In this document: positions 6,091-33,461 of the stretch, one piece after another
How the letters are laid out: every line of letters begins with the position of its first letter
How positions within the stretch are numbered: the stretch's first letter is position 1
Assembly (NCBI GenBank): GCA_017964255.1
Contig: JAGCSI010000078.1
Location: 1 to 33,725, forward strand
Reading direction: 5' to 3'
Source of the DNA: Bacteroidales bacterium
GTDB taxonomy: Bacteria > Bacteroidota > Bacteroidia > Bacteroidales > WCHB1-69
DNA length: 33,725 nucleotides
Program-made: the position numbers and the translations under genes
The notes under the pieces: generated by a model
What the model was told of the DNA's origin: nothing
The model's input: only the letters and a program-made list of their open reading frames with translations
Databases searched by the model: none

Positions 6091-6215
6091 TGAGCGATGA
6101 GCTGTGAGCTGTGAGCTATGAGTGATGAGCTGTGAGTTTTGGATTTTGGATTTTGGATTTTGAATTTTGAATTCTTTTAATTGTCAACTGTCAATTGTCA
6201 ACTATCAACTGTCAA
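6091..6215. repeat. Three consecutive heptanucleotide arrays between the sigma and membrane-protein genes
   Basis: 6091-6136 holds six units of the type TGAGCTG (variants TGAGCGA, TGAGCTA, TGAGTGA) plus a partial unit. 6137-6171 holds five units of TTTTGGA, then TTTTGAA. 6181-6215 holds five units of the type CTGTCAA / TTGTCAA / CTATCAA. The last unit contains the TGA stop codon of the sigma gene (minus strand, 6212-6214). Confidence 0.9.
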
Positions 6216-6766
6216 CTCCTCTTCCCAATCACCTCCTTCAGTTTATTCCGGGCAAAATTCAGGTGCCAGTGCGAAGTTCCCTCCTTGATATTCAGTCTCT
6301 TGGCAATCTCGGCATGGGGCATGTCCTCGAATACATAGAGGTTGAATACCGTGCGGCTCATCTGGGGCAACTCTTGTATCAGTTGCATTAGTTCGTCTGT
6401 CGAAATCTTTGCCAGCGCCTCGTTTTCGTCATGATTTTGCAGAACGTCGTCGGGCATGTCGTCGTAATTCACTGTCTCCATGTTGGCGCGGTACTTCCTC
6501 AGGTAGTCGAGTGCCGCATTCACCATGATGGTCTTCATCCATGCCTCGAAGGAGCCGCTTGGCTGGTAGGACTTCAAGCCCGCGAAAATCTTCACAAAGC
6601 CCTCGTTCACCATATCCTGCGCGTCCTCGTAACAGTGTGCGTATCGCATGCAAACCGTGAACAGCGATCCGTAGTAGGTCTTGAAAAGCCGGTGCATGGC
6701 TCTTCGCTGGCCTTTTTTACAGTCTTCTATCAGCTGCAAAATCTCATCACCGGATGGCTTGTTCAT
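6212..6766 (-). CDS. ECF-type RNA polymerase sigma factor
   Basis: A 184-residue sigma-70 family factor of the extracytoplasmic-function type, with region 2 and region 4 only. Region 2 spans about residues 22-90 (LFKTYYGSLFTVCMRYAHCYEDAQDMVNEGFVKIF, with the DAQDMVQ-like core-binding block). Region 4 is about residues 122-178 (MQLIQELPQMSRTVFNLYVFEDMPHAEIAKRLNIKEGT), with a helix-turn-helix at AEIAKRLNI-EGTSHWHL. It reads leftward into the membrane protein at 5533-6063, which may sequester it. No TAnnTTTG box was found in the 246-nt upstream gap, so it may use a self-recognised promoter. The stop codon lies inside a CTGTCAA repeat array. Confidence 0.93.
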   Translation of the reverse strand: MNKPSGDEILQLIEDCKKGQRRAMHRLFKTYYGSLFTVCMRYAHCYEDAQDMVNEGFVKIFAGLKSYQPSGSFEAWMKTIMVNAALDYLRKYRANMETVNYDDMPDDVLQNHDENEALAKISTDELMQLIQELPQMSRTVFNLYVFEDMPHAEIAKRLNIKEGTSHWHLNFARNKLKEVIGKRS

Positions 6767-6971
6767 AGTCTATAACGTATAGTCAATAAAAAATCTTTGG
6801 TCTTATTTTTAATTTTTTAGGTCTATATCTTTCCTCCTATGTATCCCCTTCAAAATTTGTTTCATCATTCCGCCTGCATATCAGGAACCCTATCCACGGT
6901 CTTCTATCACTTTTTATATGTATAAAAATTTATTTTACAATATAATACTTGAATAACCTTACTCCAAAATA

Positions 6972-7006
6972 TAAACTTTAAACTCTAAACCTTAAACCCT
7001 AAACTT
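6972..7006. repeat. Heptanucleotide array TAAACYY downstream of lptD
   Basis: Five consecutive units: TAAACTT, TAAACTC, TAAACCT, TAAACCC, TAAACTT. The array ends 6 nt from the lptD stop codon. The rest of the 246-nt gap (6767-6971) is AT-rich, and I see no gene or promoter in it beyond a short CTATA-CGT-TATAG palindrome next to the sigma start. Confidence 0.88.
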
Positions 7007-7012
7007 TCAGTT

Positions 7013-9727
7013 TTAATACATGTTGTCTCTGAAATCTTTCTGCAACGGAATCTTTACATCTTGCAGTACAGATGCCTTGATGTTCAGAGTGAAACTCCAT
7101 CCTTTGCGGTAGCCGAAGGGGATCCAGTTGAAACGCATTTCCCAGCAGTGCAGGTCGCGGTAAATGTCAATGGAGGTGTATGACATTTCTTTCTGTACAA
7201 AATCATAGCCGGTGGTGAAACCGACCTTCCATTTTTTTGTGATGTTGAATTCGCCGATGACGTTCAGCGTTTGTACAAATTTGTGAGTGTATGGTTTTTC
7301 CACATTGTTGCCCCTGTAAGAAACAATGTAGTAGCCGTAATTGTCATTGGCAGTGTAGGCAAAGGTGTAGTTGATGGTAAGAGACCAGGGGTTGTTGAAG
7401 TCCGGCCGGTGGTTGGGAATGCCCTGTGTGTTCTGGTCCAGTACCGACTCGTTGTTCTTGTTTTGTACAGCAATGTTCTGGTCGTCTTTTTGTTTTCCTT
7501 TGAATAAATCCCTGTTGATAACCAGGTTGAGACCCACGTTGACGTTGGCGTTGGAGAAACGGAGCAGCTTTTTGTTGACCTTCCATTCGGTTTGGTTAAC
7601 TCTGACTCCGTTTTGGATAATGTAGGGGTCGAATGACAGCGAGAAGGTGATGTTGAGTTGCTTCCAGATGGTGCTTCTTCCTGAGATACGCAGGGGTTGC
7701 CAGCGAAGCGAGTCGGCGGCGAAATCATAGCCCATCGATACCGACAGATTGTCGAAAATGGCGATTTTTTTGGTGCCAGTGATGGTGTCTCTCCGAGAAT
7801 GTACCTTGATTTCCAAATTGTTGTCGAAAGACAGTTGGGCCAAAGCTCTCGACTGTCCGCTTACTCCGCCATAAATCGAGTTGTCGAAATAGGAATAGTT
7901 GACATATTGTCCCGTAACTGTGTTGAAATAGGTGCCGGTTACTTGTTTGTTGAGTTTAGGACTATAGGTGACGCCGATATGGGGGGTTAGCACATGGCGG
8001 ATGGCTTTCAGTTTTCCTTTCTTGAACTGATACATGAAATACACCTTTGTGGTTAACTCGGAACTGATGCTGAGGTCGTGCAGCGCATAAAAACCCCGTT
8101 TGAACACATCATCAACCTGCCCCGCGACGTATCCTTCTGTGGTGTCGGTGCGGAAAACTCGCTCGTTACGCTGCAAATACCATTTCTCGCTGAAATTCAC
8201 TGTGGTGTTCCAGTTGATTAACTTGGCGATTTTGATAGGGATGGTGAGGGGAATGTTATGACGCATGCCAACAGCGATGTTCTCCCAGGTCTCTTTCTTG
8301 AAAAAGAGAGTGTCGTTGGTGTTGATTTGCGAGGTGATGTCCGTTGACCATTTCATGGCGATGTTGTCGTACCATTTCAGTGCGCCTGTTTTGTTTTTTT
8401 TGCGGAAAGGATAGAACTGGATTACCGACATGCTGAGAGTGGGCAGCTTGAGGTCGATCATGTGGGTGCTGGTGTTCTGTGAGTAGGAGATGGCGGCATC
8501 CAGGAAGAAAATGCCCTTGGCTCCGGTGGAGAAATTGACGGAGGAAGTGTACTGGTTGGACAGATAGTCGCTCACGCTCGAAAGGTTGTTTTTGTTGTAG
8601 CCGCTGCTCACAATGTCCACGTGGGCGGAGAAATGAGTGTAAGGGTGCGACTTGGCATCCTGTTTGTGATCCCAGTAGATTTTGAAGTCGTTGGTGTGGT
8701 AATAGGTGGAGTCGATTAACTTCTCACCGATGTATTTCTGTCCATATTCAGCCCGTATTTTGCCGGCGCACTTGTAACGGAACACGTAGTTGGACTCGGC
8801 TTTGATTGCCCAACTGCCACGGGTGTAGATGTCACCGGCCAACAGGAAGTCGAAATTGTCGCTGATGCCAAAATAATAACCGATGTTCTGCAAATAGAAG
8901 CCCAAGCTCTGCGTTTCACCAAAGGTGGGCATCACAAAGCCCGAGTGACGGCCTTTCTCCAGGGGAAAGTAGCCGAAAGGAATAGCCAACGGAGTGGGAA
9001 CATCCGCAAAACTAACATATGCGGGCCCCATGATGATTTTGTCATTGGGCAGTACCTTTGCCTTGGTGAAGGATATCTCGAAATGGGGGTGGTCCAACTC
9101 ACAGGTGGTGTATTTGCCTTTCTTGATATAGGTGGTGTTGTCCTCCAGTTTCTTGATTTGTTCACCATGAACATATCCTTCGCCTTCTTCTGTAATTACA
9201 TGGGTGATCTTGCCTTTCTTGGTCTCGAAATTATATTTGATTTCTTGCGCTCGGTAAACTCCGTCGGCTTGCTTAAGTACCGGACTGCCAATAAGTTTTC
9301 CATTCTCATCAACAACCCCACTGGCATAAAGTTCGTTGTGGGCAAAGTCTATTTCAATGTAATAGGCATACAGACTCATGTCCTCATACAGGACATAGGC
9401 ATCATTGAACAGATAAGCTACCTTGTTTTTGATGCTGAAGTGGATGGAGTCCTTGGCATCATAGGTGACAGTATGCTCCAGACCATTCTTGGCTAATTTT
9501 TTCGGATTTTTCAGGCTGTCACTTGACAAACTGTCGCTGGGCAAACTGTCCACATTTGTGATGAAAATATCGGTGGAAACGCTGTCCTGGGTAAGACTGA
9601 TATGGATGGAAGAGGCTGTGGTGTCAATGCTCTGGGAATATACACAATTACTTATCATGCTGATTATTAGAAGAATGCTGCAGCATAATAAATATGAAAA
9701 ATTTGTTGTGTATATTTTTTTATACAA
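7013..9727 (-). CDS. lptD: LPS-assembly outer-membrane protein LptD
   Basis: A 904-residue outer-membrane beta-barrel that inserts lipopolysaccharide into the outer leaflet. An N-terminal signal peptide (about residues 1-32, cleavage near VYSQS) leads into an OstA/LptA-like beta-jellyroll, ~80-230, with GVVDENGKLIGSPVL and the alternating strands of that fold. The Bacteroidota LptD signature follows (KYTTCELDHPHFEI, PLAIPFGYFPLEKGRHSG), and then a long barrel rich in aromatic, alternating strands to the end (MRFNWIPFGYRKGWSF). The Cys pattern of E. coli LptD is not conserved, as is usual in this phylum. The promoter is shared back to back with the amidase gene. The next gene downstream on the same strand is the sigma factor, 246 nt away. 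Confidence 0.9.
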   Translation of the reverse strand: MYKKIYTTNFSYLLCCSILLIISMISNCVYSQSIDTTASSIHISLTQDSVSTDIFITNVDSLPSDSLSSDSLKNPKKLAKNGLEHTVTYDAKDSIHFSIKNKVAYLFNDAYVLYEDMSLYAYYIEIDFAHNELYASGVVDENGKLIGSPVLKQADGVYRAQEIKYNFETKKGKITHVITEEGEGYVHGEQIKKLEDNTTYIKKGKYTTCELDHPHFEISFTKAKVLPNDKIIMGPAYVSFADVPTPLAIPFGYFPLEKGRHSGFVMPTFGETQSLGFYLQNIGYYFGISDNFDFLLAGDIYTRGSWAIKAESNYVFRYKCAGKIRAEYGQKYIGEKLIDSTYYHTNDFKIYWDHKQDAKSHPYTHFSAHVDIVSSGYNKNNLSSVSDYLSNQYTSSVNFSTGAKGIFFLDAAISYSQNTSTHMIDLKLPTLSMSVIQFYPFRKKNKTGALKWYDNIAMKWSTDITSQINTNDTLFFKKETWENIAVGMRHNIPLTIPIKIAKLINWNTTVNFSEKWYLQRNERVFRTDTTEGYVAGQVDDVFKRGFYALHDLSISSELTTKVYFMYQFKKGKLKAIRHVLTPHIGVTYSPKLNKQVTGTYFNTVTGQYVNYSYFDNSIYGGVSGQSRALAQLSFDNNLEIKVHSRRDTITGTKKIAIFDNLSVSMGYDFAADSLRWQPLRISGRSTIWKQLNITFSLSFDPYIIQNGVRVNQTEWKVNKKLLRFSNANVNVGLNLVINRDLFKGKQKDDQNIAVQNKNNESVLDQNTQGIPNHRPDFNNPWSLTINYTFAYTANDNYGYYIVSYRGNNVEKPYTHKFVQTLNVIGEFNITKKWKVGFTTGYDFVQKEMSYTSIDIYRDLHCWEMRFNWIPFGYRKGWSFTLNIKASVLQDVKIPLQKDFRDNMY

Positions 9728-9754
9728 TGTTGTTCTTCCTTAGTCTTATTATAA

Positions 9755-9762
9755 TATATTTG
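9755..9762 (+). promoter_or_regulatory. -7 promoter box for the amidase gene
   Basis: TATATTTG matches TAnnTTTG. A TTG at 9730-9732 is a possible -33 element (spacer 22). The box lies 40 nt upstream of the amidase ATG, in a 75-nt divergent intergenic region. Confidence 0.68.
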
Positions 9763-9777
9763 CCTTTAAAAAAAATA

Positions 9778-9785: not shown

Positions 9786-9802
9786 GTCAAATAATTTGAG
9801 TT

Positions 9803-11257
9803 ATGAACATAAAAAATGGCTTTTTATTGTTGTGTTGCTTAACTTTTTTTAACGCTGTGATTTTTGCGCAGTCTACGGAAAAGAAATTCAAGCTGGTGAT
9901 TGATGCCGGTCACGGTGGCGAGGATCCTGGATGCCGTGGAAAGAAGTCACAGGAAAAGACTGTTACATTGAATGTTGCATTGAAGTTGGGCAAGCTGATC
10001 AGTGATAATTATGACGATGTGCAGGTGATTTACACCCGTAAGACGGACGTGTTTGTGGAGGTGTACAAGCGTGCGGTTATCGCCAATAACAATCATGCCG
10101 ATCTGTTCATTTCCATCCACTGCAATGCCGCCGAAAACAAGTCGGCGCATGGTGTGGAGACCTGGGTGATGGGTTTGGCAAAGTCGGATGCCAACATGGA
10201 GGTTGCCAAAAAAGAGAATGCAGCCATCTTGAAGGAGAAGAATTTTGAGAACAATTACGAGGGTTTTAATCCTAATTCCCCTGAAGCCAATGTGATTTTC
10301 TCGCTGCATACTTCCGCTTATATGAATCATTCCATCATGTTGGCGGACAAAGTGCAGAAAAATCTGGTCAGAAACACGCATTTGTTGGACAGAACGGTGA
10401 AGCAGGCAGGTTTCTGGGTGCTGTACAAGGTGGCGATGCCCAGTATTCTGATTGAGTTGGGTTTCTTGTCCAATGCTGTGGAAGAGGAATATATGATCAA
10501 ACCTGGTTCACAGGATGTGATGGCGGTTTCCATTTACAATTCGTTTGTGGAATACCGTAATGCTTTGGATGGTACCAACAAGCCTTTGTTGCCGCTTCCG
10601 AAAGCCAGTGAGCAGGAAAAGAGTGCAGCCAGTGCCGATGCCGGTGTGGCTCCGGAACCATATAAACCTGCTCCCAAAGCGGATGCAGACGTGGCCGCTG
10701 ATCCGGTGAAACCTCAATCCAAAACCGATACGGAAGTTGCCGCAGACCCTGTTAAGCCCGCACCAAAGCAGGACACTGATGTTGCTGCGGATCCGGTGAA
10801 ACCACAACCCAAAGCCGACGCTGGAGTTGCGGCGGAACCTATTAAGCCTGCACCAAAACAGGATGCTGATGTTGCTGCTGATCCTGTGAAACCTCAGCCT
10901 AAGAGCGATGCGGCTGTCGCTGCTGAACCAGTGAAACCGGCTCCGCAAGCCGAAGTAAAGCCTGCCTCGCAAGTACCTGCACAAACAGCCGTGCAGCATA
11001 ATATCCGTTTCAGGGTGCAAATCGCCGCTATCCCTGAGAATGTTTCGGTAACGGATAGTCGCTTCAACAAGGTAAAAGACGTGCGTAAATTCAAGGAAGG
11101 CAAATTCTGGAAATACACTTCTGGCAATGCCACTACCTTGGATGAAGCACAGGAAATCCTGAAAGCAGTGAAACCTTACTTTGCGGATGCTTTCATCATC
11201 GCTTTCGATGGAGAAAATAAAATCCCCGTCAGCCAAGCGGTGGAGCGCTTAAAATAG
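9803..11257 (+). CDS. N-acetylmuramoyl-L-alanine amidase (Amidase_3) with repeat linker and SPOR-like C-terminus
   Basis: Zinc-dependent periplasmic amidase that cuts the bond between MurNAc and the stem peptide, typically during daughter-cell separation. Signal peptide 1-22 (cleavage after FAQ). The amidase domain, ~30-252, shows DAGHGGEDPG (His37), Glu51, FISIHCNA (His106) and PSILIELGFLSN (catalytic Glu218). An inserted segment at ~128-170, rich in Lys/Glu/Asn, is where regulated amidases carry an occluding helix. Residues ~270-390 form a Pro/Ala/Lys/Asp-rich linker containing six perfect-length 15-residue repeats. Residues ~398-484 (FRVQIAAIP..., TLDEAQEILKAVKPYFADAFIIAF) look like a SPOR-type peptidoglycan-binding domain. 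It converges with the methyltransferase gene, 7 nt away. Confidence 0.92.
   Translation: MNIKNGFLLLCCLTFFNAVIFAQSTEKKFKLVIDAGHGGEDPGCRGKKSQEKTVTLNVALKLGKLISDNYDDVQVIYTRKTDVFVEVYKRAVIANNNHADLFISIHCNAAENKSAHGVETWVMGLAKSDANMEVAKKENAAILKEKNFENNYEGFNPNSPEANVIFSLHTSAYMNHSIMLADKVQKNLVRNTHLLDRTVKQAGFWVLYKVAMPSILIELGFLSNAVEEEYMIKPGSQDVMAVSIYNSFVEYRNALDGTNKPLLPLPKASEQEKSAASADAGVAPEPYKPAPKADADVAADPVKPQSKTDTEVAADPVKPAPKQDTDVAADPVKPQPKADAGVAAEPIKPAPKQDADVAADPVKPQPKSDAAVAAEPVKPAPQAEVKPASQVPAQTAVQHNIRFRVQIAAIPENVSVTDSRFNKVKDVRKFKEGKFWKYTSGNATTLDEAQEILKAVKPYFADAFIIAFDGENKIPVSQAVERLK
10667..10936 (+). repeat. Six 45-bp tandem repeats inside the amidase linker
   Basis: Exactly 270 nt, coding for six 15-residue units of the type P-A/Q-P-K-x-D-x-x-V-A-A-D/E-P-V/I-K. 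PA- and PQ-type units alternate, so there is a 90-bp higher-order period repeated three times. A degenerate seventh unit (ADAGVAPEPYK) precedes it. All units stay in frame. Confidence 0.92.
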
Positions 11258-11264
11258 TTCAGTT

Positions 11265-14797: not shown

Positions 14798-14853
14798 GGT
14801 TAGGAGGTTAGAAGGTTAGAAAGGTTAGGAGGTTAGAAGGTTAGGAGGTTAAG
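14798..14853. repeat. Octanucleotide array GGTTAGRA upstream of the ketosynthase gene
   Basis: About seven units: GGTTAGGA, GGTTAGAA, GGTTAGAAA, GGTTAGGA, GGTTAGAA, GGTTAGGA and the degenerate GGTTAAGG. It occupies the left part of the 256-nt gap between ketosynthase and reductase. No gene is visible in this gap. Confidence 0.88.
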
Positions 14854-14880: not shown

Positions 14881-14963
14881 GGGAGTCTCGCTTTGCTCGA
14901 GGGGAGTTTTGGGCTACGCCCTCAAGGGGAGTCTCATGCTATGCATTCGAGGGGAGTCCTGAG
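14881..14963. repeat. Array of three variable hairpins separated by a constant GGGGAGT spacer
   Basis: Each unit reads spacer, CTC or TTT, a small hairpin, TC, then GAG or AAG. The hairpins differ: GC-TTT-GC (14890-14896), GGGC-TAC-GCCC (14911-14921) and ATGC-TAT-GCAT (14936-14946). The outer CTC/GAG can extend the stem in units 1 and 3. Spacer starts are 21, 25 and 25 nt apart, and a fourth spacer begins at 14951 and ends in CCTGAG. Confidence 0.8.
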
Positions 14964-15020
14964 TTCTGAATTTTGAATTTTGAAATTTGAATTATTCAAT
15001 TGTCAACTGTCAACTGTCAA
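14964..15020. repeat. Heptanucleotide arrays at the 3' end of the FabG-like gene
   Basis: 14964-14991 carries TTCTGAA, TTTTGAA, TTTTGAA, ATTTGAA. After a TTATTCA junction, 15000-15020 carries TTGTCAA, CTGTCAA, CTGTCAA. The next triplet, 15021-15023 (CTA), is the TAG stop codon of the reductase gene on the minus strand. Confidence 0.88.
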
Positions 15021-15749
15021 CTATGTGTAAAGTCCTCCATTCACCGAGATGACTTCCCCATTGATGTAAGCAGCATCGTCGCTGGCCAGGAAGGCAGCCA
15101 CAGCGGCCACTTCTTCGGGTGTGCCGAAACGGCCTGCGGGAATCAGCTTCTTGAGAGATGCCTCGTCCAATTCCTTGGTCATGTCGGTAGCGATAAAGCC
15201 TGGAGCGACAGCGTTGACCGTGATTTTGCGGGATCCTACTTCCTGTGCCAAAGCTTTGGTGGCTCCGATTAAGGCAGCCTTGGCGGCGGAATAGTTGAGC
15301 TGTCCGTTCTGTCCTTTGATACCCGACAGGGAGGCAATATTGATAATGCGTCCGTGACGGTGCGTCATCATCTCTTTCACCAGGCGGCGGGTCAGATAGA
15401 AAAAGCCGTTGAGGTTGGTGTTCAGCACGTCGTTCCAGTCATCGTTGCTCATGAAAACTATCAGTGTGTCTCTTCGGATACCGGCATTGTTAACCAGTAC
15501 AGAAATGTATTCGTCCGGATGTTGGGTACTCCAACGATCCAAAGCAGCGTTAACCTGCTCTTCGTCAGCAACATCAAAAGGAAGCATTTCGGCACTTCCG
15601 CCCACTTCTTCCACCAGTTGCTGGGTTTCCATGGCCGCTTCACGGTTATTGTTGTAGTTGATAATCACATGAAAGCCCTGCTGCGCTAATTTGACACAAA
15701 TGGCTCGTCCGATGCCTCTTGAACCACCGGATACTAAGGCGTAATTCAT
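15021..15749 (-). CDS. 3-oxoacyl-ACP reductase (FabG-like SDR), aryl-polyene cluster
   Basis: A 242-residue short-chain dehydrogenase/reductase. The NADP-binding motif SGGSRGIGRAI (7-17), NNAG (87-90) and the catalytic residues Ser140, Tyr153 and Lys157 (NYSAAKAAL) are all present, and the C-terminus NGGLYT is typical of FabG. It should reduce the ketoacyl-ACP made by the neighbouring ketosynthase. The start codon overlaps the ammonia-lyase stop in an ATGA, so the two are translationally coupled. It could be a housekeeping FabG, but the coupling and the downstream ketosynthase and ACP favour the pigment pathway. Confidence 0.9.
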   Translation of the reverse strand: MNYALVSGGSRGIGRAICVKLAQQGFHVIINYNNNREAAMETQQLVEEVGGSAEMLPFDVADEEQVNAALDRWSTQHPDEYISVLVNNAGIRRDTLIVFMSNDDWNDVLNTNLNGFFYLTRRLVKEMMTHRHGRIINIASLSGIKGQNGQLNYSAAKAALIGATKALAQEVGSRKITVNAVAPGFIATDMTKELDEASLKKLIPAGRFGTPEEVAAVAAFLASDDAAYINGEVISVNGGLYT

Positions 15750-17784: not shown

Positions 17785-17825
17785 TTTTTCCTATTTTTCG
17801 TTACGATTATTTCGTGTTATAAATT

Positions 17826-17853
17826 TAAGAACTAAAAATTAAGAACTAAGAAT
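17826..17853. repeat. Heptanucleotide array upstream of atpF
   Basis: Four units: TAAGAAC, TAAAAAT, TAAGAAC, TAAGAAT, in the 158-nt gap between atpE and atpF. The array is on the atpF side of the hairpin at 17888-17925. Confidence 0.8.
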
Positions 17854-18212: not shown

Positions 18213-18232
18213 TTAAGGGGTTTGTTTGTTAT

Positions 18233-18358
18233 GTTGAGTTGTTTAATTGTTTAATTGTTTAATTGTTGAGTTGTGTTTATTTTAGTTCTTAATTCTTAAT
18301 TCTTAATCCCATTAGCACATTAACCAATTTGCTAATTTGCTAATTAACTAATTTGCTA
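18233..18358. repeat. 7- and 8-nt arrays between atpB and atpE, running into the atpB coding end
   Basis: 18233-18272: five octamers (GTTGAGTT, three GTTTAATT, GTTGAGTT). 18282-18309: four heptamers (TTAGTTC, TTAATTC twice, TTAATCC). 18311-18358: six octamers (ATTAGCAC, ATTAACCA, ATTTGCTA twice, ATTAACTA, ATTTGCTA). The last array encodes the final residues and the TAG stop of atpB on the minus strand. Confidence 0.9.
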
Positions 18359-19484
18359 ATTCTTCATGGTGCGGCTCTTCTATCGCCATGCCGATATAGA
18401 TGGCGGACAACAGGGTGAATACATAGGCTTGGATGAAGGCTACCAGCAATTCAAGCATACCCATGAAAATATAGAAGAAAATGGATACCGGTGACACCGC
18501 ATAGCCAATGGCGGGCACCATGGCACCGAAGATGAAAATCAAACTCAGGAAGCCCAATACAATGATATGTCCCGCAGTGATGTTGGCGAAAAGTCGGATC
18601 ATCAGCACGAACGGTTTGGTGAACACACCGATAAATTCAACCAAAGGCATAAGGGGAACGGGGAATTTCAGCCACCAGGGCACACCGGGGGAGTTGAAGA
18701 TGTCTTTCCAGTAATGCTTGTTGCCTGAAATGTTGGTGATGAAGAAGGTGATGATGGCCAAGATGGCGGTCACAGTGATATTGCCGGTAAAGTTGGCACC
18801 ACCCGGGAAAAACGGAACCAGACCCATCAGGTTGTTGACCAGGATGAAAAAGAACAAGGTCAGCAGGTAGGGGAAGTATTTTTGGTATTTGTCCTCGCCA
18901 ATAGAGGGGATGGCCACTTCATCACGGACAAACAGGATAATGGGTTCTAAGTAAGATTGCAAGCCTTTGGGGGCTTTCAGCGGTCCTTCTTTGTATTTTT
19001 TCGCCACCGACAGGAACATCCAGCAGAGTAAAATGATGGAAATCAGCAGGGCGCATACGTTCTTGGTGATGGAAACGTCATATTTGCATACATGGTCGAT
19101 AGGGGGACATGCCTCTTTATAGTCCAATTCCCCTGTGTAATCGGCGTAATTGCCGCCTAACTTGACAATTGAACCGTCAGTTTCTTCCGTAAATCCCAGG
19201 GCATATCCTTTGTAGGCCTGATGACCATGATGGAACTTGCTGGAGGAGAATGCCACAAACTTACCGCCATCGAAAAGCATTATCGGCAACGGAATAGAAA
19301 TGTGATGCTCGTTATAGGTGGTAATATGCCAGCCATATTCATCGGTGATGTGGTCCATAATGTATCCACCGATGTCCAATTTCTCCTCTTCCGCTTGAGC
19401 ATTCAAACTGAAATTGGGAGAAAAAAGAAAAAAAAGGAAGAAAAACAGAATGGGGAAGGCGGCATTTATTTTGTTGTAAGTCAT
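18348..19484 (-). CDS. atpB: F-type ATP synthase F0 subunit a
   Basis: A 378-residue proton-channel subunit. A cleavable-looking signal peptide (1-30, ending LNAQA) and an extra N-terminal soluble domain (~31-140) are typical of Bacteroidota. The membrane part follows from ~147. The essential Arg is in FVLMIRLFANITAGHIIVLGF, and the C-terminal helices are complete. The last codons (E-L-A-N then TAG) coincide with octamer units of the array at 18311-18358, so the C-terminal tail is repeat-encoded. It is the first gene of the leftward F0/pigment run; atpI is not present before it. Confidence 0.95.
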   Translation of the reverse strand: MTYNKINAAFPILFFFLFFLFSPNFSLNAQAEEEKLDIGGYIMDHITDEYGWHITTYNEHHISIPLPIMLFDGGKFVAFSSSKFHHGHQAYKGYALGFTEETDGSIVKLGGNYADYTGELDYKEACPPIDHVCKYDVSITKNVCALLISIILLCWMFLSVAKKYKEGPLKAPKGLQSYLEPIILFVRDEVAIPSIGEDKYQKYFPYLLTLFFFILVNNLMGLVPFFPGGANFTGNITVTAILAIITFFITNISGNKHYWKDIFNSPGVPWWLKFPVPLMPLVEFIGVFTKPFVLMIRLFANITAGHIIVLGFLSLIFIFGAMVPAIGYAVSPVSIFFYIFMGMLELLVAFIQAYVFTLLSAIYIGMAIEEPHHEELAN

Positions 19485-21016: not shown

Positions 21017-21030
21017 TTTATTTATTGTAT

Positions 21031-21051
21031 TTTGAACTTTGAATTTTGAAT
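21031..21051. repeat. Heptanucleotide array upstream of the TPR gene
   Basis: Three units, TTTGAAC, TTTGAAT, TTTGAAT, directly in front of the TPR gene start (21016), in its leader. Confidence 0.75.
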
Positions 21052-21060
21052 TCTATTTAT

Positions 21061-21083: not shown

Positions 21084-21116
21084 TGCAACCTGTAACCTGT
21101 AACCTATCTCCTGCTA
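21082..21116. repeat. Heptanucleotide array at the dut 3' end
   Basis: Units CCTGCAA, CCTGTAA, CCTGTAA, CCTATCT and, one base later, CCTGCTA. The TAG stop codon of dut (CTA at 21114-21116 on the plus strand) is the end of the last unit. Confidence 0.82.
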
Positions 21117-21548
21117 TTTCACCCCGCTGCTGCCGAAGCCGCCGGCGCCTCTTTCAGTGTCGGACAGCACCTCCACCTCTTCCCACTGCACGGTTTCGTG
21201 TTTGGCGATGACCATCTGGGCGATGCGCTCACCATGCTGTATTTCAAAGGGTTCTGTGGACAGGTTGATGAGGATGACCTTGATTTCTCCGCGGTAGTCG
21301 GCATCGATGGTGCCAGGGGTGTTGAGGACAGTGATGCCGTGTTTGGCGGCCAGTCCGCTTCTGGGGCGCACCTGTGCCTCGTAGCCGACGGGCAGTTCAA
21401 TGAACAAGCCGGTAGGAATCATGGCGCGTTCCATGGGTTTCAGGGTAATGGGGGCCTCAAGATTGGCTCTCAGGTCCATGCCGGCACTCTGGGCGGTGGC
21501 GTATGCCGGTGTGGCGTTGGTGGATTTGTTGACGATTTTACAGATCAT
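21114..21548 (-). CDS. dut: dUTP diphosphatase
   Basis: A 144-residue trimeric dUTPase that hydrolyses dUTP to dUMP and keeps uracil out of DNA. All five family motifs are present: SAGMDLRA (I), [10 protein letters not shown] (III-like core, preceded by VRP), [11 protein letters not shown] with the catalytic Asp, ERIAQMVI (IV) and the P-loop-like [10 protein letters not shown] near the C-terminus (V). Length is standard. The start is ATG 21548; a conserved AATTAGCACAT motif lies a few bases upstream. The gene is bracketed by inverted copies of a 23-nt element and by repeat arrays on both sides. Confidence 0.96.
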
Positions 21549-21584
21549 ATTTTTAATGTGCTAATTAGTTTATGTGCTGATTTT

Positions 21585-21712
21585 TTAGGGATTAGGTTTT
21601 AGGGGTTAGTGTTTAGTGTTTAGAGGTTAGAAGGTTAGAAGGTTAGAGGGTTAATGTTTAGGGATTAGAAGGTTAGAAGGTGAGAAGGTTAGAGGGTTAG
21701 GGGTAGAGATTA
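21585..21712. repeat. Long 7- to 8-nt array upstream of dut
   Basis: 21585-21626 has six heptamers starting TTAG (TTAGGGA, TTAGGTT, TTAGGGG, TTAGTGT twice, TTAGAGG). It slides into about nine octamers of the type GGTTAGAA/GGTTAGAG up to 21712, interrupted near 21653-21665. A TTTTGAA-type array follows (about 21723-21760). No gene is visible in this 259-nt gap. Confidence 0.85.
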
Positions 21713-21761
21713 AGGATTACAGGATTTTGAATTTTGGATTTTGAATTCTGAATTTTGAATT

Positions 21762-21801
21762 CCCCTTCTTCTAGAAGGGGTGCCCGAAGGGCGGGGTAGT
21801 A
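21762..21801 (+). repeat. REP-like double hairpin next to the RlmL-like gene
   Basis: Two hairpins in a row: CCCCTTC-TTCTA-GAAGGGG (21762-21780) and GCCC-GAA-GGGC (21782-21792), followed by GGGGTAGT. The second half has an inverted relative at 21061-21083. It resembles intergenic hairpin elements common in Bacteroidota genomes. Confidence 0.75.
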
Positions 21802-21805
21802 TACT

Positions 21806-21840
21806 TGTTAACTGTTCCCTATAACCTGTTCCCTGTAACC
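21806..21840. repeat. Heptanucleotide array coding for the C-terminus of the RlmL-like protein
   Basis: Alternating units CTGTTCC, CTATAAC, CTGTTCC, CTGTAAC. Read on the minus strand in frame they encode the last residues of the methyltransferase (GYREQVIGNS) and its TAA stop at 21808-21810. Confidence 0.82.
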
Positions 21841-22986
21841 TGATTTCTTCCCTGCGTATAGGTCAAACTTCAGCATCAGGCATTCGAGGGGGCCGTTGAA
21901 GAGTTTGAAGCGGCGGGATGGGCGCAATCCGATGCTCTTTAGCGCCTCTATGTCCGAGCTGATGATGAAGGCGGTGCAGCCGCTGAAATACTGCTTCCAT
22001 GTGTCGCCGATTTTTTTGTACAGGACTTTGAGATCTTCCACCTCCAAGCGCTCACCGTAGGGTGGGTTGATCATGATCAGAGCAGGGGTGCGTTCGGGAC
22101 GTGTGTCGGCCATGTCAGATTTCTCTAAAAAGATAAAGTCTTGCAATTCAGCTTCCTGCACATTGGCCTTGGCCATGCCTAAATATCGTCCGGAGATGTC
22201 GTAGCCGTAAAAGTTGATGTTGACATCCTCTTTGATGTCGGCACTGTCGGTAATCTTGTTCCACAGTCGCCGGTCGAAGTTCTTCCAGTTAAAGAAACCC
22301 CAGTGGTGGCGGTAGTAGCCGGCGGGGATGTTGAGTGCCTGCATGGCGGCCTCGATGAGAAGGGTTCCGCCACCGCACATGTTGTCGATGAAGTCGCACT
22401 CGCCATGCCAGCCGCTGAGTTTGATCATGGCCGCCGCCAGCACTTCGTTGATTTGCGCGGGATGCCCCGATACCTTGTAGCCGCGCTTGTGCAGCGACTC
22501 ACCCGAACTATCCAGATACAGGGTGCAACTGTTGCGGTAAATGTGCAAGTGGAACTGTACGTCAGGCTCTTCTTTGTCTACCGATGGGCGCTCATTGTAA
22601 ATGCTTCTGAAACGGTCGCAGATGGCATCTTTGGCCAGCACCGAAGGGAAAAGCGGGGTTTTGAAGTCGCTTTCCGTCAGTGAGGCGCTGACCGCCAGGG
22701 TGCCGTCTTTCGACAGGTATTTCTCTGCGGGGAATTTGTAGATGGCATCGTAAAACTGGTTGTTGTCACGGAAAGTGAAACTGTCCATCTCCCAGAGTAT
22801 CCTCAGGGCGGTGCGGCAGAAGTAGTTGGCCTTGTAGAGTAGGGGAAGGTCGCCCTCGAAAGAGACGGAACGGCTGTGTTGCTGGCAGTTATGCGCTCCC
22901 AGTGCCTCTAACTCCTGTAACAATACTTCTTCCAACCCTGCGAAGGTCTTGGCCAGGAAGTGTTCTTTATGTTGTTTTTCAATCAT
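21808..22986 (-). CDS. THUMP-domain 23S rRNA guanine-N2 methyltransferase (RlmL N-domain-like)
   Basis: A 392-residue RNA methyltransferase. The N-terminal ferredoxin-like/THUMP part (~1-160, FLAKTFAGLEEVLLQELEALGA) precedes the SAM domain with DNMCGGGTLLIEAA (motif I), FYGYDISG and the N2-guanine signature NPPYGERL. It resembles the m2G2445 half of RlmL. I set the start at ATG 22986 rather than 23022, because a TATCTTTG promoter box (23012-23019) lies between them. The family body should end near FDLYAGKK; the remaining SGYREQVIGNS is encoded by a heptamer array, so this tail is probably a recent addition. It is divergent from the glycosyltransferase gene. Confidence 0.9.
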   Translation of the reverse strand: MIEKQHKEHFLAKTFAGLEEVLLQELEALGAHNCQQHSRSVSFEGDLPLLYKANYFCRTALRILWEMDSFTFRDNNQFYDAIYKFPAEKYLSKDGTLAVSASLTESDFKTPLFPSVLAKDAICDRFRSIYNERPSVDKEEPDVQFHLHIYRNSCTLYLDSSGESLHKRGYKVSGHPAQINEVLAAAMIKLSGWHGECDFIDNMCGGGTLLIEAAMQALNIPAGYYRHHWGFFNWKNFDRRLWNKITDSADIKEDVNINFYGYDISGRYLGMAKANVQEAELQDFIFLEKSDMADTRPERTPALIMINPPYGERLEVEDLKVLYKKIGDTWKQYFSGCTAFIISSDIEALKSIGLRPSRRFKLFNGPLECLMLKFDLYAGKKSGYREQVIGNS

Positions 22987-23011
22987 TATTTTCAGTTGAT
23001 GTTTAAAACTG

Positions 23012-23019
23012 CAAAGATA
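23012..23019 (-). promoter_or_regulatory. Promoter for the RlmL-like gene
   Basis: TATCTTTG on the minus strand, with TTTG at 23041-23044, 21 nt upstream. The -33 element is supplied by a unit of the AATTAGCA array. The box lies 26 nt before ATG 22986, and rules out a start at 23022. Confidence 0.75.
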
Positions 23020-23026
23020 CAAAAAT

Positions 23027-23050
23027 AATTAGCAAATTAGCAAATTAGTT
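23027..23050. repeat. Octanucleotide array AATTAGCA overlapping a promoter
   Basis: Three units (AATTAGCA twice, AATTAGTT) immediately upstream of the -7 box of the RlmL-like gene. The same unit family ends the atpB gene at 18311-18358. Confidence 0.8.
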
Positions 23051-23067: not shown

Positions 23068-23182
23068 CGTTAAGGCGTGGAGGCGTAGAGACATGCACTG
23101 CGTGCATTCGGATAGACGTTATAGTAATTATCGTCTTAACGAGCGAACGAAGTGAGCGTCTCCACGTTTTCACGTCTTAACG
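23068..23182. repeat. Imperfect 25-nt inverted repeat with internal hairpins
   Basis: The left arm 23068-23092 and right arm 23158-23182 are inverted copies matching at 19 of 25 positions, with a 65-nt centre. The centre holds a perfect hairpin ATGCAC-TGC-GTGCAT (23093-23107) and a GAGCG...TGAGCG motif pair. The right arm continues with another GTCTCCACG. The element fills the divergent gap and ends 40 nt before the glycosyltransferase promoter box. Confidence 0.75.
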
Positions 23183-23221
23183 TCTCCACGAAAAAAAACG
23201 TGAAGATTCCGGAAAAAATTG

Positions 23222-28622: not shown

Positions 28623-28632
28623 TGTGTTGAAT

Positions 28633-29892: not shown

Positions 29893-29947
29893 AAATTTCT
29901 GTTTTTCAGTATGTTATATTTTCAGAGACAAAAACTCTTTAAAAGTG

Positions 29948-29955
29948 CAAATTTA
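29948..29955 (-). promoter_or_regulatory. Promoter of the TolC-like gene
   Basis: The minus strand reads TAAATTTG with TTG at 29975-29977, exactly 19 nt upstream. This is one of the best matches to the Bacteroidota consensus in the window. It lies 55 nt before the ATG. Confidence 0.78.
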
Positions 29956-30015
29956 GAAAAATTTTTGTCATAAACAATTCGTTATCGGAATGTATATAGA
30001 ATCAACAAAAATCAG

Positions 30016-30023
30016 TATTTTTG
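30016..30023 (+). promoter_or_regulatory. -7 promoter box for the small lipoprotein gene
   Basis: TATTTTTG, 45 nt before ATG 30069. It overlaps a TTG at 30021 that would otherwise extend the reading frame, so it decides the start. No clear -33. Confidence 0.68.
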
Positions 30024-30068
30024 CAAAAAGTTTTTTTTGTTCAATTATTGAAGATTAAAGCATTGAAT

Positions 30069-30335
30069 ATGAAAATATTGAAAAGGGTTAACGGCAAGGC
30101 GGTGGCGTTTGGTTTGGTTGCGCTCATGGTTATGGGCCTGATTTCATGCAAGAGGGAGAAATGCTCGTATTACAAAGATATTATGAAATATTACGACCAG
30201 TCGGAGGAGGCCTGGACTAATAGCTATGAGCAGGGAAAAATAGACTCGGTAGATTTGGATAACCAGTTGTACAAAATTCAGCGCGAGCGCGAGGCCTTGA
30301 AAAAACAGTACAAGGAGTGTGTGGAGGAAGAGTAA
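30069..30335 (+). CDS. Small lipoprotein of unknown function
   Basis: An 88-residue protein with a lipoprotein signal peptide (KAVAFGLVALMVMGLISC, Cys27), followed by a highly charged, mostly helical mature part of ~60 residues (EAWTNSYEQGKIDSVDLDNQLYKIQ..., ending in EEE). It has three Cys in total after the lipidation site region, so a disulfide in the periplasm is possible. I do not recognise the family. ATG 30069 is preferred because the promoter box lies at 30016-30023. lepA follows 21 nt after its stop, and the two may be partly co-transcribed. Confidence 0.7.
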   Translation: MKILKRVNGKAVAFGLVALMVMGLISCKREKCSYYKDIMKYYDQSEEAWTNSYEQGKIDSVDLDNQLYKIQREREALKKQYKECVEEE

Positions 30336-30343
30336 AATTTTCG

Positions 30344-30351
30344 TATTTTTG
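30344..30351 (+). promoter_or_regulatory. -7 promoter box abutting the lepA start codon
   Basis: TATTTTTG ends only 5 nt before ATG 30357. If used, transcription would begin at about the start codon itself, giving a leaderless lepA mRNA. No -33 match was seen. Confidence 0.6.
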
Positions 30352-30356
30352 CCGTT

Positions 30357-32147
30357 ATGATGAAGAATATTAGGAATTTTTGCATTATTGCCCATATCGA
30401 CCACGGTAAGAGTACTTTAGCTGACCGTTTGCTGCAATATACAGGTACGGTGAACGAGCGCGATTTTCAGGATCAGGTGCTGGATGATATGGATTTGGAG
30501 CGCGAGCGTGGTATCACCATCAAAAGCCATGCTATCCAGATGAATTATAAATATAAAGGTGAGGAATATGTGCTGAACCTGATTGACACTCCGGGGCATG
30601 TGGACTTTTCTTACGAGGTGTCCCGTTCCATTGCCGCCTGCGAAGGCGCTTTGTTGCTGATAGACGCAACCCAAGGTGTTCAGGCCCAGACGATTTCGAA
30701 CCTGTATCTGGCCATTGAGAATGATTTGGAAATCATTCCGGTGCTGAACAAGATGGATATGCCGGCCGCCATGCCCGACGAGGTGAAAGACCAGATTGTG
30801 GATTTGATTGGCTGCGACGCCTCCGACATTATCGAGGCCAGCGGCAAGACCGGTGCTGGCGTGGAGGAGATTCTCGCCGCTATCATCGAAAAGATTCCCG
30901 CTCCCGTTGGCGACCCTGCCGCTCCGCTGCAAGCATTGATTTTCGACTCCGTATTCAATTCATACAGAGGTATTATCGCTTATTTCCGTATCAAAAACGG
31001 TACGATTAAGACCAACGATTTTGTGAAATTCATGGCCACGGGTAAGGAGTATTATGCCGACGAAATCGGGGTGTTGCGCCTGAATCAGGAGCCGAAAGCG
31101 GAACTGTCCGCCGGCGATGTGGGCTATATTATTTCGGGTATCAAGACTTCCAAGGAGGTGAGGGTAGGTGATACCATCACCCATGTGAACAATCCTTGCA
31201 CAGAGGCAGTTGCGGGTTTCCAAGAGGTGAAACCGATGTTGTTTGCCGGTATCTATCCCACCAATGCCGATGACTACGAGGAGTTGCGTTCTTCGCTGGA
31301 GAAATTGCAGTTGAACGATGCCTCTTTGACTTTCGTTCCGGAATCCTCCGCCGCATTGGGCTTCGGTTTCCGTTGCGGTTTCTTGGGCTTGCTACACATG
31401 GAAATTGTGCAGGAACGCTTGGACCGAGAGTTCGATATGGATGTGATTGCCACCGTTCCCAATGTGTCGTACAAGGTCATCACCACCAAACGCGAGGTGT
31501 TGGAGGTGCATAATCCTTCGGGTATGCCGGCCCCCAATGCCATCGACCATGTGGAGGAACCTTTTATTTTGGCCCAGATTATCACCAAGGCCGAGTTTAT
31601 CGGTCCCGTGATGAAGTTATGTCTCGACAAACGTGGTACGCTGATCAACCAGACCTACATCTCTACCGACCGTATAGAATTGTCTTTTTACCTGCCTTTG
31701 GGTGAGATTATTTTCGACTTCTATGACAAACTGAAGAGCATTTCCAAGGGTTATGCTTCTTTCGATTACCATATTTCAGACTACAAACCCGCACAGCTGG
31801 TGAAACTGGATATTCTCCTGAATGGCGATTCGGTGGATGCCTTGTCATCGCTGATTCATGCCGATAATGCCTACGCTTTTGGTCGCCGTATTTGCGAGAA
31901 ACTGAAGGAGTTGATTCCCAGACAGCAGTTCGACATTGCCATCCAGGCGGCTATCGGTACCAAGATTATCGCTCGCGAAACAGTTAAAGCAGTGCGAAAG
32001 GATGTGACGGCCAAGTGTTATGGTGGTGATATTACCCGTAAGCGTAAGCTGTTGGAGAAGCAGAAGCAGGGCAAGAAACGTATGCGCCAGATTGGTAATG
32101 TGCAAGTGCCACAGTCCGCATTCCTCGCTGTGCTGAAGCTGGATTAA
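30357..32147 (+). CDS. lepA: Elongation factor 4 (LepA), ribosome-associated GTPase
   Basis: A 596-residue translational GTPase that acts on stalled or back-translocating ribosomes. Motifs are in order: G1 [10 protein letters not shown]2 around RERGIT, G3 [10 protein letters not shown]4 NKMDMP and G5 SGKTG. Then come domains II, III and V, and the LepA-specific C-terminal domain with its basic end ([31 protein letters not shown]). Length and domain order are standard. The ATG at 30360 (MKNIRNFC) is an equally good start. Its own TAnnTTTG box ends 5 nt upstream. Confidence 0.97.
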
Positions 32148-32233
32148 GCTTTTTCTTCCTCAGGTCTGAATTTATAAAGGCAGATTCTGTATAAAAAAAT
32201 TCTTCGAATTAACTTTTATTAACAAAAAAGTTG

Positions 32234-32241
32234 TATCTTTG
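32234..32241 (+). promoter_or_regulatory. -7 promoter box for the cysteine desulfurase gene
   Basis: TATCTTTG, 24 nt before ATG 32266. It contains a TTG (32239) that would lengthen the frame; the box makes that start unlikely. The remaining gap after lepA (32148-32233) is AT-rich and holds no clear terminator. Confidence 0.7.
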
Positions 32242-32265
32242 CAGCGATTTAAAAATTGTGAAGAT

Positions 32266-33420
32266 ATGATATATTTAGACAATTCTGCAACTTCTTTTCC
32301 TAAGCCTGTAGAGGTTTATGATTTTATGAACAGCTTTTACCGCGACCATGGTGTAAGTCCTGGCCGTTCGGGCTTTGACGCTGCTATTGAAACAGGCGAA
32401 ATGGTTGAGGAAACTCGTAAAATGCTCACGAAGTTGTTCAATGGTGGTGAAGATCCCAATCGTTTGACTTTCAGCTATAATGCTACGGATTCTTTAAACA
32501 TATTGATACAAGGTTTGGTGGAAAAAGGTGCCCATGTGATTACCACTATGTTGGAGCATAACTCTGTTCTCCGTCCCTTGTATGTGATGCAGGAGCGTGG
32601 TATTATAGACGTAACTTACGTGCCTTTCGACAAACATGGTTATGTGGATCCCGATGATATAGAGAAGGCAATCAAACCGAATACCAAATTTGTGGTTTGC
32701 ACCCAGTGTTCCAATGTGATTGGCACAGTGCAGCCTATTGCCGAAATCGGCAAGATTTGCAAGAAACATGGTTTGATTTTTGTGGTGGACGGCAGTCAAG
32801 GTGCTGGCGCTAATACCATGGATATGATTAATTATGGTGTTGATTGCTATGCTTTCACCGGTCACAAATGCCTGATGGGACCCACCGGTATTGGTGGTTC
32901 CTACGTGCGTGAAGGCATTGAGATCAAACATACCCGCTTCGGTGGTACTGGTGTGCGTTCCGCATATCCCGGCCATTTGGATGAATATCCTTATCGTTTG
33001 GAAGCCGGAACCCTGAATGTTTTGGGTGTGGCCGGTCTGCATGCGGGCGTGAAATGGGTGATGGAGAAAGGTGTCGAGAATATTCATGACCAGGAAATGA
33101 AACTGTGGGAGAAACTGCGTCTGGGTATCAAGGATGTGCCTGGTGTGACCTTGTACTGCGCTGAATCTGTTGAAAATCACAATCCTGTGATGTCTATCAA
33201 TATCAATGGCTTTGAAGCTGGTGATGTGGGTACAATGCTGGATGTGGACCACGATATCGCTTGCCGTACCGGTTTGCAGTGTGCGCCCAAAGTGCATGTG
33301 GGTATCGGCACCATCGACATTCACGGTACCGTTCGTTTGAGCATCGGCGCTTTCAACACCGAAGCCGACATTGACGCAGCCATCAATGCAGTGAAGGAAA
33401 TCGCTGCGCTGAAGAACTAA
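32266..33420 (+). CDS. Cysteine desulfurase / class V aminotransferase-fold PLP enzyme
   Basis: A 384-residue PLP enzyme of the SufS/NifS type that removes sulfur from cysteine for Fe-S cluster or other sulfur pathways. Visible landmarks are MIYLDNSATSFPKP, LEHNS, the PLP pocket VVDGSQGAG, the PLP lysine in AFTGHKCLMGPTG, FGGTGVRS, and the catalytic-cysteine loop ACRTGLQCAP near the C-terminus. The short catalytic loop and GHK block place it with the SufS/Csd-like group rather than IscS. ATG 32266 is chosen because the promoter box overlaps the longer frame. No suf or isc genes are adjacent. A heptamer array and a terminator follow. Confidence 0.92.
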   Translation: MIYLDNSATSFPKPVEVYDFMNSFYRDHGVSPGRSGFDAAIETGEMVEETRKMLTKLFNGGEDPNRLTFSYNATDSLNILIQGLVEKGAHVITTMLEHNSVLRPLYVMQERGIIDVTYVPFDKHGYVDPDDIEKAIKPNTKFVVCTQCSNVIGTVQPIAEIGKICKKHGLIFVVDGSQGAGANTMDMINYGVDCYAFTGHKCLMGPTGIGGSYVREGIEIKHTRFGGTGVRSAYPGHLDEYPYRLEAGTLNVLGVAGLHAGVKWVMEKGVENIHDQEMKLWEKLRLGIKDVPGVTLYCAESVENHNPVMSININGFEAGDVGTMLDVDHDIACRTGLQCAPKVHVGIGTIDIHGTVRLSIGAFNTEADIDAAINAVKEIAALKN

Positions 33421-33426
33421 AAGAAA

Positions 33427-33461
33427 TTTAGAATTCAAAATTCAGAATTCAGAATTCAAAT
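33427..33461. repeat. Heptanucleotide array after the cysteine desulfurase gene
   Basis: Five units: TTTAGAA, TTCAAAA, TTCAGAA, TTCAGAA, TTCAAAT. The array begins 6 nt after the TAA stop. Confidence 0.85.

What the first reader, a model, noticed from the sequence alone, without database searches (positions are those of the whole stretch)
6091..33461. Genome-wide-looking family of 7- and 8-nt intergenic arrays, each with its own unit
At least twelve short arrays occur in this 33.7-kb window (6091, 6137, 6181, 6972, 14798, 14964, 15000, 17826, 18233, 18282, 18311, 21031, 21082, 21585, 21806, 23027, 33427). Unit length is nearly always 7 or 8 nt, yet the unit differs: TGAGCTG, TTTTGGA, CTGTCAA, TAAACCT, GGTTAGAA, CCTGTAA, TAAGAAC, ATTTGCTA, TTCAGAA. 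Units drift by one or two bases within an array, and different arrays are placed end to end. This recalls the heptameric STRR sequences of heterocystous cyanobacteria, but with many unrelated units in one genome. A fixed length with free sequence suggests a length-measuring copying process rather than selection for a sequence.
Basis: partly seen in the sequence, partly recalled or inferred. Interest (0 to 1): 0.75.

Follow-up and report, generated by a model that had tools for sequence, protein, structure and literature searches.

The report
Drifting 7- and 8-letter intergenic repeat arrays
Between its genes this bacterium, a relative of rumen species, carries short tandem repeats whose unit is almost always 7 or 8 letters long; sister species often keep arrays in the same places but with changed wording, gaining or losing whole units, which makes an old puzzle about why bacteria favour 7-letter repeats easier to test.

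Summary
All 17 listed arrays are present. In 1.27 Mb from eight genomes of the genus, 269 of 353 intergenic arrays have period 7 or 8 (a ninth, G004, lacks them in 60 kb). In own-genome spacers periods 2-6 give none.

The reading is partly supported. The units are not unrelated: 59 of 60 distinct heptamers form one network of single-base steps, with a loose YTNANAR register. Outside the genus the lengths persist, but the TNA core is not significantly enriched.

Between sister species, 24 of 27 in-array indels of 5 bp or more are whole units. Array presence follows the spacer (25 groups all, 40 none, 16 mixed) while wording changes. Composite blocks recur elsewhere in the genome. Arrays run into gene 3' ends and write species-specific C-terminal tails, as in RlmL.

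Best explanation: unit-by-unit slippage plus drift and ectopic copying, without sequence-specific function. The 7-nt lower bound may reflect what polymerase and repair sense (inferred). Heptamer excess is in print (PMC6344855, PMC4679880); this is a dense Bacteroidales variant.

The parts
6090..6173 (.). Composite 7-nt array: TGAGCTG units passing into TTTTGGA/TTTTGAA in one register
6179..6217 (.). 7-nt array TGTCAAC; the stop codon (TGA on the minus strand, 6212-6214) of the gene 6212-6766 lies in it
6966..7004 (.). 7-nt array TAAACYY
14798..14851 (.). 8-nt array GGTTAGAA (given period 25 by the lag scorer)
14954..14991 (.). 7-nt array TTTTGAA/TTCTGAA
14996..15022 (.). 7-nt array CTGTCAA, touching the 3' end of gene 15021-15668 (-)
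17821..17853 (.). 7/14-nt array TAAGAAC
18232..18274 (.). 8-nt array TTGTTTAA; the orthologous G001 spacer has the same array with one unit (TTGTTGAA) more
18282..18307 (.). 7-nt array TTCTTAA; two units longer in G001
18310..18361 (.). 8-nt array TTTGCTAA/TTAACTAA reaching into the 3' end of gene 18348-19484 (-); one unit shorter in G001
21025..21052 (.). 7-nt array TTTTGAA
21078..21105 (.). 7-nt array CCTGTAA beside the 3' end of gene 21114-21548 (-), dut-like (my naming, not searched)
21585..21703 (.). Composite 7/8-nt array TTAGGG.../TTAGAAGG; its spacer shares blocks of 186, 156 and 110 bp with spacers in L012 and contig C19, and through L012 with L017
21722..21762 (.). 7-nt array ATTTTGAA within the same dispersed block
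21811..21842 (.). 7/14-nt array CCTGTAA/CTGTTCC inside the 3' end of RlmL (21808-23022, -); it encodes the tail SGYREQVIGNS after the conserved GKK
23027..23048 (.). 8-nt array AATTAGCA upstream of RlmL; a TAnnTTTG promoter-like site starts 9 nt further on towards RlmL
33425..33458 (.). 7-nt array AATTCAG/AATTCAA; one unit shorter in G003, by eye

Best explanation
These are intergenic tandem arrays that tend to stay in particular spacers and are rewritten in place. Shown: (1) unit length is almost only 7 or 8; (2) arrays differ between sister species by whole units; (3) neighbouring copies are more alike than distant ones; (4) the genus's heptamers form one network of single-base steps; (5) which spacers hold arrays is kept far more than chance, while units are at times wholly replaced; (6) composite blocks occur at several places in one genome; (7) arrays press against and into gene 3' ends, avoid 5' ends and are rarer between divergent genes. 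Inferred: replication slippage adds and removes units, point mutation makes units drift and local duplication fixes variants, and recombination between array-bearing spacers copies composite blocks. The 7-nt lower bound would come from polymerase, proofreading and mismatch repair sensing bulges placed closer to the primer end, and the fall beyond 8 from longer chance seeds being rarer. No sequence-specific function is needed; position is limited by what promoters and genes tolerate.
For: Period spectrum. Whole-unit indels: 24 of 27 at aligned identity 0.93 or more (expected 4.1; 50 spacer pairs), 25 of 30 at 0.88 (expected 4.4; 93 pairs). Identity at 1 to 5 units' distance in 58 heptamer arrays of 7 or more copies: 0.80, 0.74, 0.68, 0.63, 0.60. 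Network: 2 clusters from 60 heptamers (null 16.0, SD 3.2) and 6 from 33 octamers (null 26.5, SD 1.9). Spacer retention: 25 all, 40 none, 16 mixed of 81 groups against 10.2, 17.1, 53.8 when shuffled. Replacement: 12 of 60 array-bearing spacer pairs share no unit. Blocks: composite blocks of 110-206 bp at 74-81% identity; 45 of 57 array-bearing own spacers share a match of 45 bp or more with another own spacer, against 29 of 191 array-free ones. 3' ends touched by 102 of 380 arrays (random 48.6 of 358), 5' ends by 22 (random 42.0). Divergent spacers hold arrays in 16 of 100, tandem in 119 of 475, convergent in 30 of 76. MutS and MutL are present, so no repair loss is needed.
Against: No mutation was watched; slippage is read from comparison. 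Units of 5 and 6 nt should also escape mismatch repair fairly well (recalled), yet are absent. In this genus the fall from 8 to 9 (47 to 1 in G000; 70 to 10 in six sisters) is steeper than chance seeding predicts; only the sample outside the genus falls more gradually (7, 8, 9, 10: 29, 8, 5, 1), and 4 of its 39 genomes were chosen because they hold TTTTGAA arrays. Some array pairs are too different for unit-by-unit change alone. Some 45-bp matches between spacers may be no more than two arrays of one unit. Outside arrays, 8 of 23 indels of 5 bp or more are also multiples of 7 or 8 (18 of 64 at the looser cut). Spacer pairs and dispersed copies are not independent, so nominal significance is inflated; a first smaller set looked nearly perfect (60 both, 68 neither, 2 discordant) and the larger one did not (16 of 81 mixed).
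Confidence: 0.6

Rival explanations
1. The arrays are binding sites for a regulator (DNA- or RNA-binding protein, such as the Csp, S1 or Csr proteins suggested for TAACTGA repeats), and the loose YTNANAR register is its recognition motif.
For: T-N-A in 53 of 60 heptamers (null 39.3, SD 3.2) and 30 of 33 octamers (null 22.3, SD 2.4); EM register score 3.39 against 2.69 per unit in shuffles; TAACTGA of Beggiatoaceae can be rotated to CTGATAA, which fits YTNANAR (my comparison, no call; chance roughly 5-10% by hand). Octamers lean against the direction of transcription (11 same, 28 opposite).
Against: Heptamers show no clear strand bias to transcription (51 same, 36 opposite) and neighbouring 7-nt arrays agree in strand 12 times and disagree 12 times. 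Arrays avoid 5' ends. Units are swapped between sister species. TNA is not significantly enriched outside the genus (21 of 28, null 18.3). In the family search the reversed control also hits often (own 319 against 170).
Confidence: 0.12
2. The composite arrays are remains of a dispersed miniature element (REP- or MITE-like) that is copied around as 100-200 bp blocks.
For: Blocks of 110-206 bp with the same series of different arrays at several places in one genome; a 14-nt-period module in different spacers of G002 and G008; octamer elements with hairpins in several spacers; one clean presence/absence of an array-holding stretch (G000 C11 34939-35055 lacks what four relatives have), though a deletion in G000 explains it as well.
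Against: Array-bearing state follows the spacer; I saw no shared ends or target duplication by eye but made no systematic search for them; most change within conserved arrays is by whole units. Copying may explain spread but not the 7/8 rule.
Confidence: 0.15
3. Arrays are selected as stop-codon cushions at gene 3' ends: a unit length not divisible by 3 that holds TNA puts stops in all three frames of one strand.
For: 3' ends are preferred, and 35 of 102 genes ending in arrays stop with TGA against 188 of 1103 overall; 7 and 8 are not multiples of 3; 6 and 9 are absent or rare.
Against: CTA/TAG is not enriched in units (17 against 15.8; 8 against 9.3); TNA is not significantly enriched outside the genus; 4, 5, 10 and 11 would serve equally and are absent or rare. 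Preference for 3' ends may be mere tolerance.
Confidence: 0.08
4. A dedicated template-copying enzyme (reverse transcriptase- or telomerase-like) adds 7-8 nt units.
For: Sharp length window with varied sequence; several units resemble telomere repeats (recalled resemblance).
Against: Many units would need many templates; single-step drift inside arrays fits mutation better. No such enzyme was searched for, so absence is not claimed.
Confidence: 0.03

Closest known systems
Intergenic tandem heptamer repeats of prokaryotes at large (PMC6344855; two passages seen)
   Different: Here octamers are nearly as common, units drift across composite arrays, and turnover is read across sister species.
TAACTGA direct repeats of Beggiatoaceae, Cyanobacteria and five Bacteroidetes (PMC4679880; abstract, passages and section 12 seen)
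   Same: Intergenic 7-nt direct repeats, also in Bacteroidetes; other heptamers noted in the same spacers, and larger assemblages in Elizabethkingia.
   Different: There one unit dominates, single-base variants are rarely repeated, and most repeats (in the main genome) lie just upstream of start codons; here variants form a cloud and arrays avoid 5' ends.
GGGNATC heptamers of Xanthomonas and Nostoc (PMC4692102; abstract and passages seen)
   Same: Heptameric, genome-wide, mainly non-coding; most lie between the same genes in two Xanthomonas species with extensive length and sequence variation, which is close to the spacer retention seen here.
   Different: G-rich, G-quadruplex-forming, one consensus; here units are mostly A+T-rich and varied.
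STRR sequences of heterocystous cyanobacteria (recalled; one search gave listings only)
   Same: Heptameric intergenic tandem arrays with several families per genome.
   Different: Relationship not tested; no cyanobacterial sequence could be fetched.

Membership tests
Prokaryotic long simple sequence repeats of the heptamer class | Tandem units of 5-11 nt in excess over chance, heptamers the commonest class | tested here: met
Prokaryotic long simple sequence repeats of the heptamer class | Mainly non-coding | tested here: met
   269 intergenic against 21 coding period-7/8 arrays
Prokaryotic long simple sequence repeats of the heptamer class | Length change by whole units between relatives | tested here: met
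   24 of 27 indels
TAACTGA repeats | Unit TAACTGA with single-base variants rarely repeated | tested here: not met
   60 distinct heptamers, 59 in one single-step network; TAACTGA is not among the 30 commonest units printed
TAACTGA repeats | Location a few nt upstream of start codons | tested here: not met
   22 of 380 arrays at 5' ends, random 42.0; 102 at 3' ends, random 48.6
Cyanobacterial STRR | Homology or shared units with the cyanobacterial families | not tested
   control records not held
REP/MITE-like element | Dispersed copies with defined ends | tested here: inconclusive
   dispersed blocks found; ends not defined
REP/MITE-like element | Insertion into otherwise identical empty sites | tested here: inconclusive
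   16 of 81 spacer groups mixed; of 5 aligned, 1 shows a clean presence/absence (array stretch missing in G000, present in four relatives, so deletion or insertion) and 4 show replacement or arrays near the score limit

The most novel reading that the evidence does not exclude
Bacteroidales replication or repair has an intrinsic ruler that lets repeat units of 7-8 nt, and almost no others, multiply whatever their sequence; in this genus the process runs fast enough to replace the wording of intergenic arrays between sister species and to write species-specific tails onto conserved proteins at gene 3' ends.
Probability: 0.3. Interest if true: 0.72.

Novelty: new variant of a known kind. Interest (0 to 1): 0.55.

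Why it matters
A 2018 survey left the dominance of heptamers in prokaryotic intergenic DNA without explanation (PMC6344855, passages). This genus gives many arrays, several related species with them, a sharp 7/8 window and countable whole-unit events, so the length rule can be measured rather than guessed. It also shows a route by which non-coding repeats change protein C-termini.

Tried and rejected
Hairpin-driven slippage: self-complementarity of the units does not exceed shuffles (heptamers 3.67 against 3.74; octamers 4.00 against 3.97), and DNA folding energy of 80 heptamer arrays does not differ from column-permuted ones; 71 octamer arrays fold somewhat better (mean -1.1 kcal/mol).

Loss of mismatch repair: MutS1 matches in 25 of 25 genomes (24 over cut-off; the exception, G011, is in another genus) and MutL over cut-off in 25 of 25.

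Arrays as rearrangement points: the six stretches displayed at three synteny breaks held no arrays; two of the breaks lie at tRNA-like sequences (by eye). Three cases only.

Assembly artefact: array at 1 of 60 contig ends, 1.0 expected.

Stop-codon selection as the cause of TNA: TAG/CTA not enriched.

Geometric decay of unit counts from 7 upward as a test of chance seeding: rejected within the genus because 8 is too common and 9 too rare; roughly compatible outside it.

Family order in composite arrays: relative strands of some neighbouring families are consistent but order is not fixed, and the common register across long arrays is moderate (12 of 31 same strand and phase). Not used as main evidence.
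Full report
What the window is. The window is contig C16 of a 2.50 Mb, 151-contig, 74% complete genome of the Bacteroidota, judged from a flexirubin tyrosine ammonia-lyase and other best matches. Of six named relatives of its RlmL-like gene, five match at 87-94% identity and one at 63%; all are titled Bacteroidales or Bacteroidetes MAGs, one of the five from sheep rumen by its title. The window's own source is not named. Eight further genomes of the genus are held.

Observation. In 569 kb of this genome 99 of 136 intergenic arrays have period 7 or 8; shuffled intergenic DNA gives none. Over 1.27 Mb of eight genomes the counts are 180 and 89 of 353 intergenic arrays, against 16 and 5 of 86 in coding DNA (G004 was not in this set). 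In own spacers periods 2-6 give 0 at score 12 or more, 7 gives 52, 8 gives 47, 9 gives 1 and 10 gives 2. G004, in the same genus, has no intergenic ones in 60 kb. E. coli K-12 has none in 100 kb. Gene borders come from my own codon-based gene finder, not from an annotation.

The units are related. The 60 distinct heptamers fall into 2 clusters under single-base linkage (59 and 1; null 16.0, SD 3.2) and the 33 octamers into 6 (null 26.5, SD 1.9). T-N-A occurs in 53 of 60 and 30 of 33 (null 39.3 and 22.3; of 1000 shuffles none reached 53, at least one reached 30). EM gives YTNANAR for heptamers and YTNAKNNG for octamers, scoring above shuffles (3.39 against 2.69, and 3.99 against 3.04; the null runs had fewer restarts). 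Units related by descent are not independent, so these numbers overstate significance. Outside the genus TNA is 21 of 28 heptamers against 18.3 expected and 9 of 11 octamers against 8.4, not significant, even though part of that set was fetched with patterns that favour TNA. Periods 7 and 8 still lead there: 20 of 32 intergenic arrays in 19 other family genomes and 17 of 29 in 20 genomes of other families (four of the 20 were picked for holding TTTTGAA arrays). The pattern YTNANAR x4 hits 94 of 104 family genomes, but its reversed control also hits often (own 319 against 170), and G007, which has arrays, gives 0. TTTTGAA x3 occurs in 23 of 393 genomes of the order, own included.

Turnover. The spacer downstream of RlmL holds TTAGGG/TTAGAAGG/TTTTGAA here, AATTAAG in G001, TCAGTGA/TTAGGGG/AATTCAA in G002, and TGTGCTAA/AATTAAG/TTGTTTAA/TTCTTAG in G005 and G008, which differ from each other by single units; G004 has no array there and other neighbours. 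Across orthologous spacers with aligned identity of 0.93 or more (50 pairs used), 24 of 27 in-array indels of at least 5 bp are multiples of the period of the array hit (expected 4.1); outside arrays 8 of 23 are multiples of 7 or 8. Similarity between copies falls with distance. Of 81 orthologous spacer groups from seven species 25 have arrays in all species, 40 in none and 16 in some; shuffling gives 10.2, 17.1 and 53.8. All 13 groups with mean spacer length under 80 bp are array-free, which inflates the 'none' class. A first, smaller comparison had only 2 discordant pairs of 130, so the larger sample weakened that result. Of 60 array-bearing pairs 12 shared no unit at all (a lenient measure of sharing). 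Five of the 16 mixed groups were aligned: one shows a stretch with arrays cleanly missing in G000, the others replacement or arrays near the score limit.

Dispersed blocks. Blocks of 110-206 bp with the same series of different arrays link window 21548-21807, L012, L017 and C19 at 74-81% identity (45 of 243 matches were listed). Of 57 array-bearing own spacers 45 share a match of at least 45 bp with another own spacer; of 191 array-free ones, 29 do. Short matches can be two arrays of one unit, so the long composite ones carry the argument that array content is copied between spacers as well as altered in place.

Position. Arrays occur in 30 of 76 convergent, 119 of 475 tandem and 16 of 100 divergent spacers. 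They touch or overlap gene 3' ends in 102 of 380 cases (random placement 48.6 of 358) and 5' ends in 22 (random 42.0); orthologous copies are counted separately in this tally. Genes that end in arrays stop at TGA in 35 of 102 cases against 188 of 1103 overall. RlmL shows the consequence: after the conserved GKK its tail is SGYREQVIGNS here, QGTEIIKN in G001 (L053) and SGDRRQVTGDRSELRTKN in G005 and G008 (L055, L056), each read from the local repeats; the same script failed to find the frame in L057. Heptamers have no clear strand bias to transcription (51 to 36); octamers do (11 to 28), and of 7 octamer hits facing a downstream gene 6 have TAnnTTTG within 40 nt, of 21 hits in all.

Mechanism. 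Slippage by whole units, drift, local duplication and ectopic copying account for these facts without a sequence-specific role. That 7 is the shortest unit is, I infer, because a bulge nearer the primer end is sensed by polymerase or repair; the polymerase part was proposed by Mrazek et al. 2007 as cited in PMC4679880 and PMC4692102; I did not read the 2007 paper. That mismatch repair handles short loops best is recalled. MutS and MutL are present.

Known work. Heptamer dominance in prokaryotic intergenic DNA is in print, with the function called unclear (PMC6344855, two passages). TAACTGA arrays are reported in five Bacteroidetes (PMC4679880, abstract, passages and section 12). Retention between the same genes with length and sequence change was noted for GGGAATC repeats of two Xanthomonas species (PMC4692102, passages). 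My searches listed no paper on mixed 7- and 8-nt arrays in Bacteroidales; they cover open PubMed Central papers only, and except for only the top 10 to 20 of 14 to 421 hits were shown.

Noticed in passing
window 23068-23190; orthologous spacer of G003 C71: An element of 8-nt repeats (GTTAAGGC/GTGGAGGC and their complements) at both ends around two hairpins; by eye its middle part lies in the opposite orientation in G003, which looks like inversion between the repeats. Related copies lie in several other own spacers.
   Followed up: partly
window 14881-14958: Three head-to-tail hairpin units framed by GGGAGT...CGA, about 25 nt each; G001 keeps one (by eye).
   Followed up: no
window 21808-21842 and L053, L055, L056: Species-specific C-terminal tails of RlmL encoded by the neighbouring repeat array.
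   Followed up: partly
window 10636-10929: Period 45/90 coding repeat inside the N-acetylmuramoyl-L-alanine amidase gene 9803-11257, perhaps a linker.
   Followed up: no
G008 C60 from about 22982: Synteny with G005 ends inside a tRNA-like sequence (by eye); the DNA that follows was not searched, an integrated element is a guess.
   Followed up: no
G008, spacer orthologous to G005 C17 12406-12652: By eye, three copies of a unit of roughly 70 bp that itself holds 7-nt arrays and a CGGTTCCACCG hairpin.
   Followed up: no
G000 C11 30919-31125 and orthologue G002 C5 9884-10089: Spacer nearly identical in G000 and G002 although flanks of six other mapped spacers average 80% identity; suggests exchange between species.
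   Followed up: no
L054 11256-11313 (end of a G003 contig): Array with 9-nt unit TAACCTTCC, one of the few period-9 arrays.
   Followed up: no
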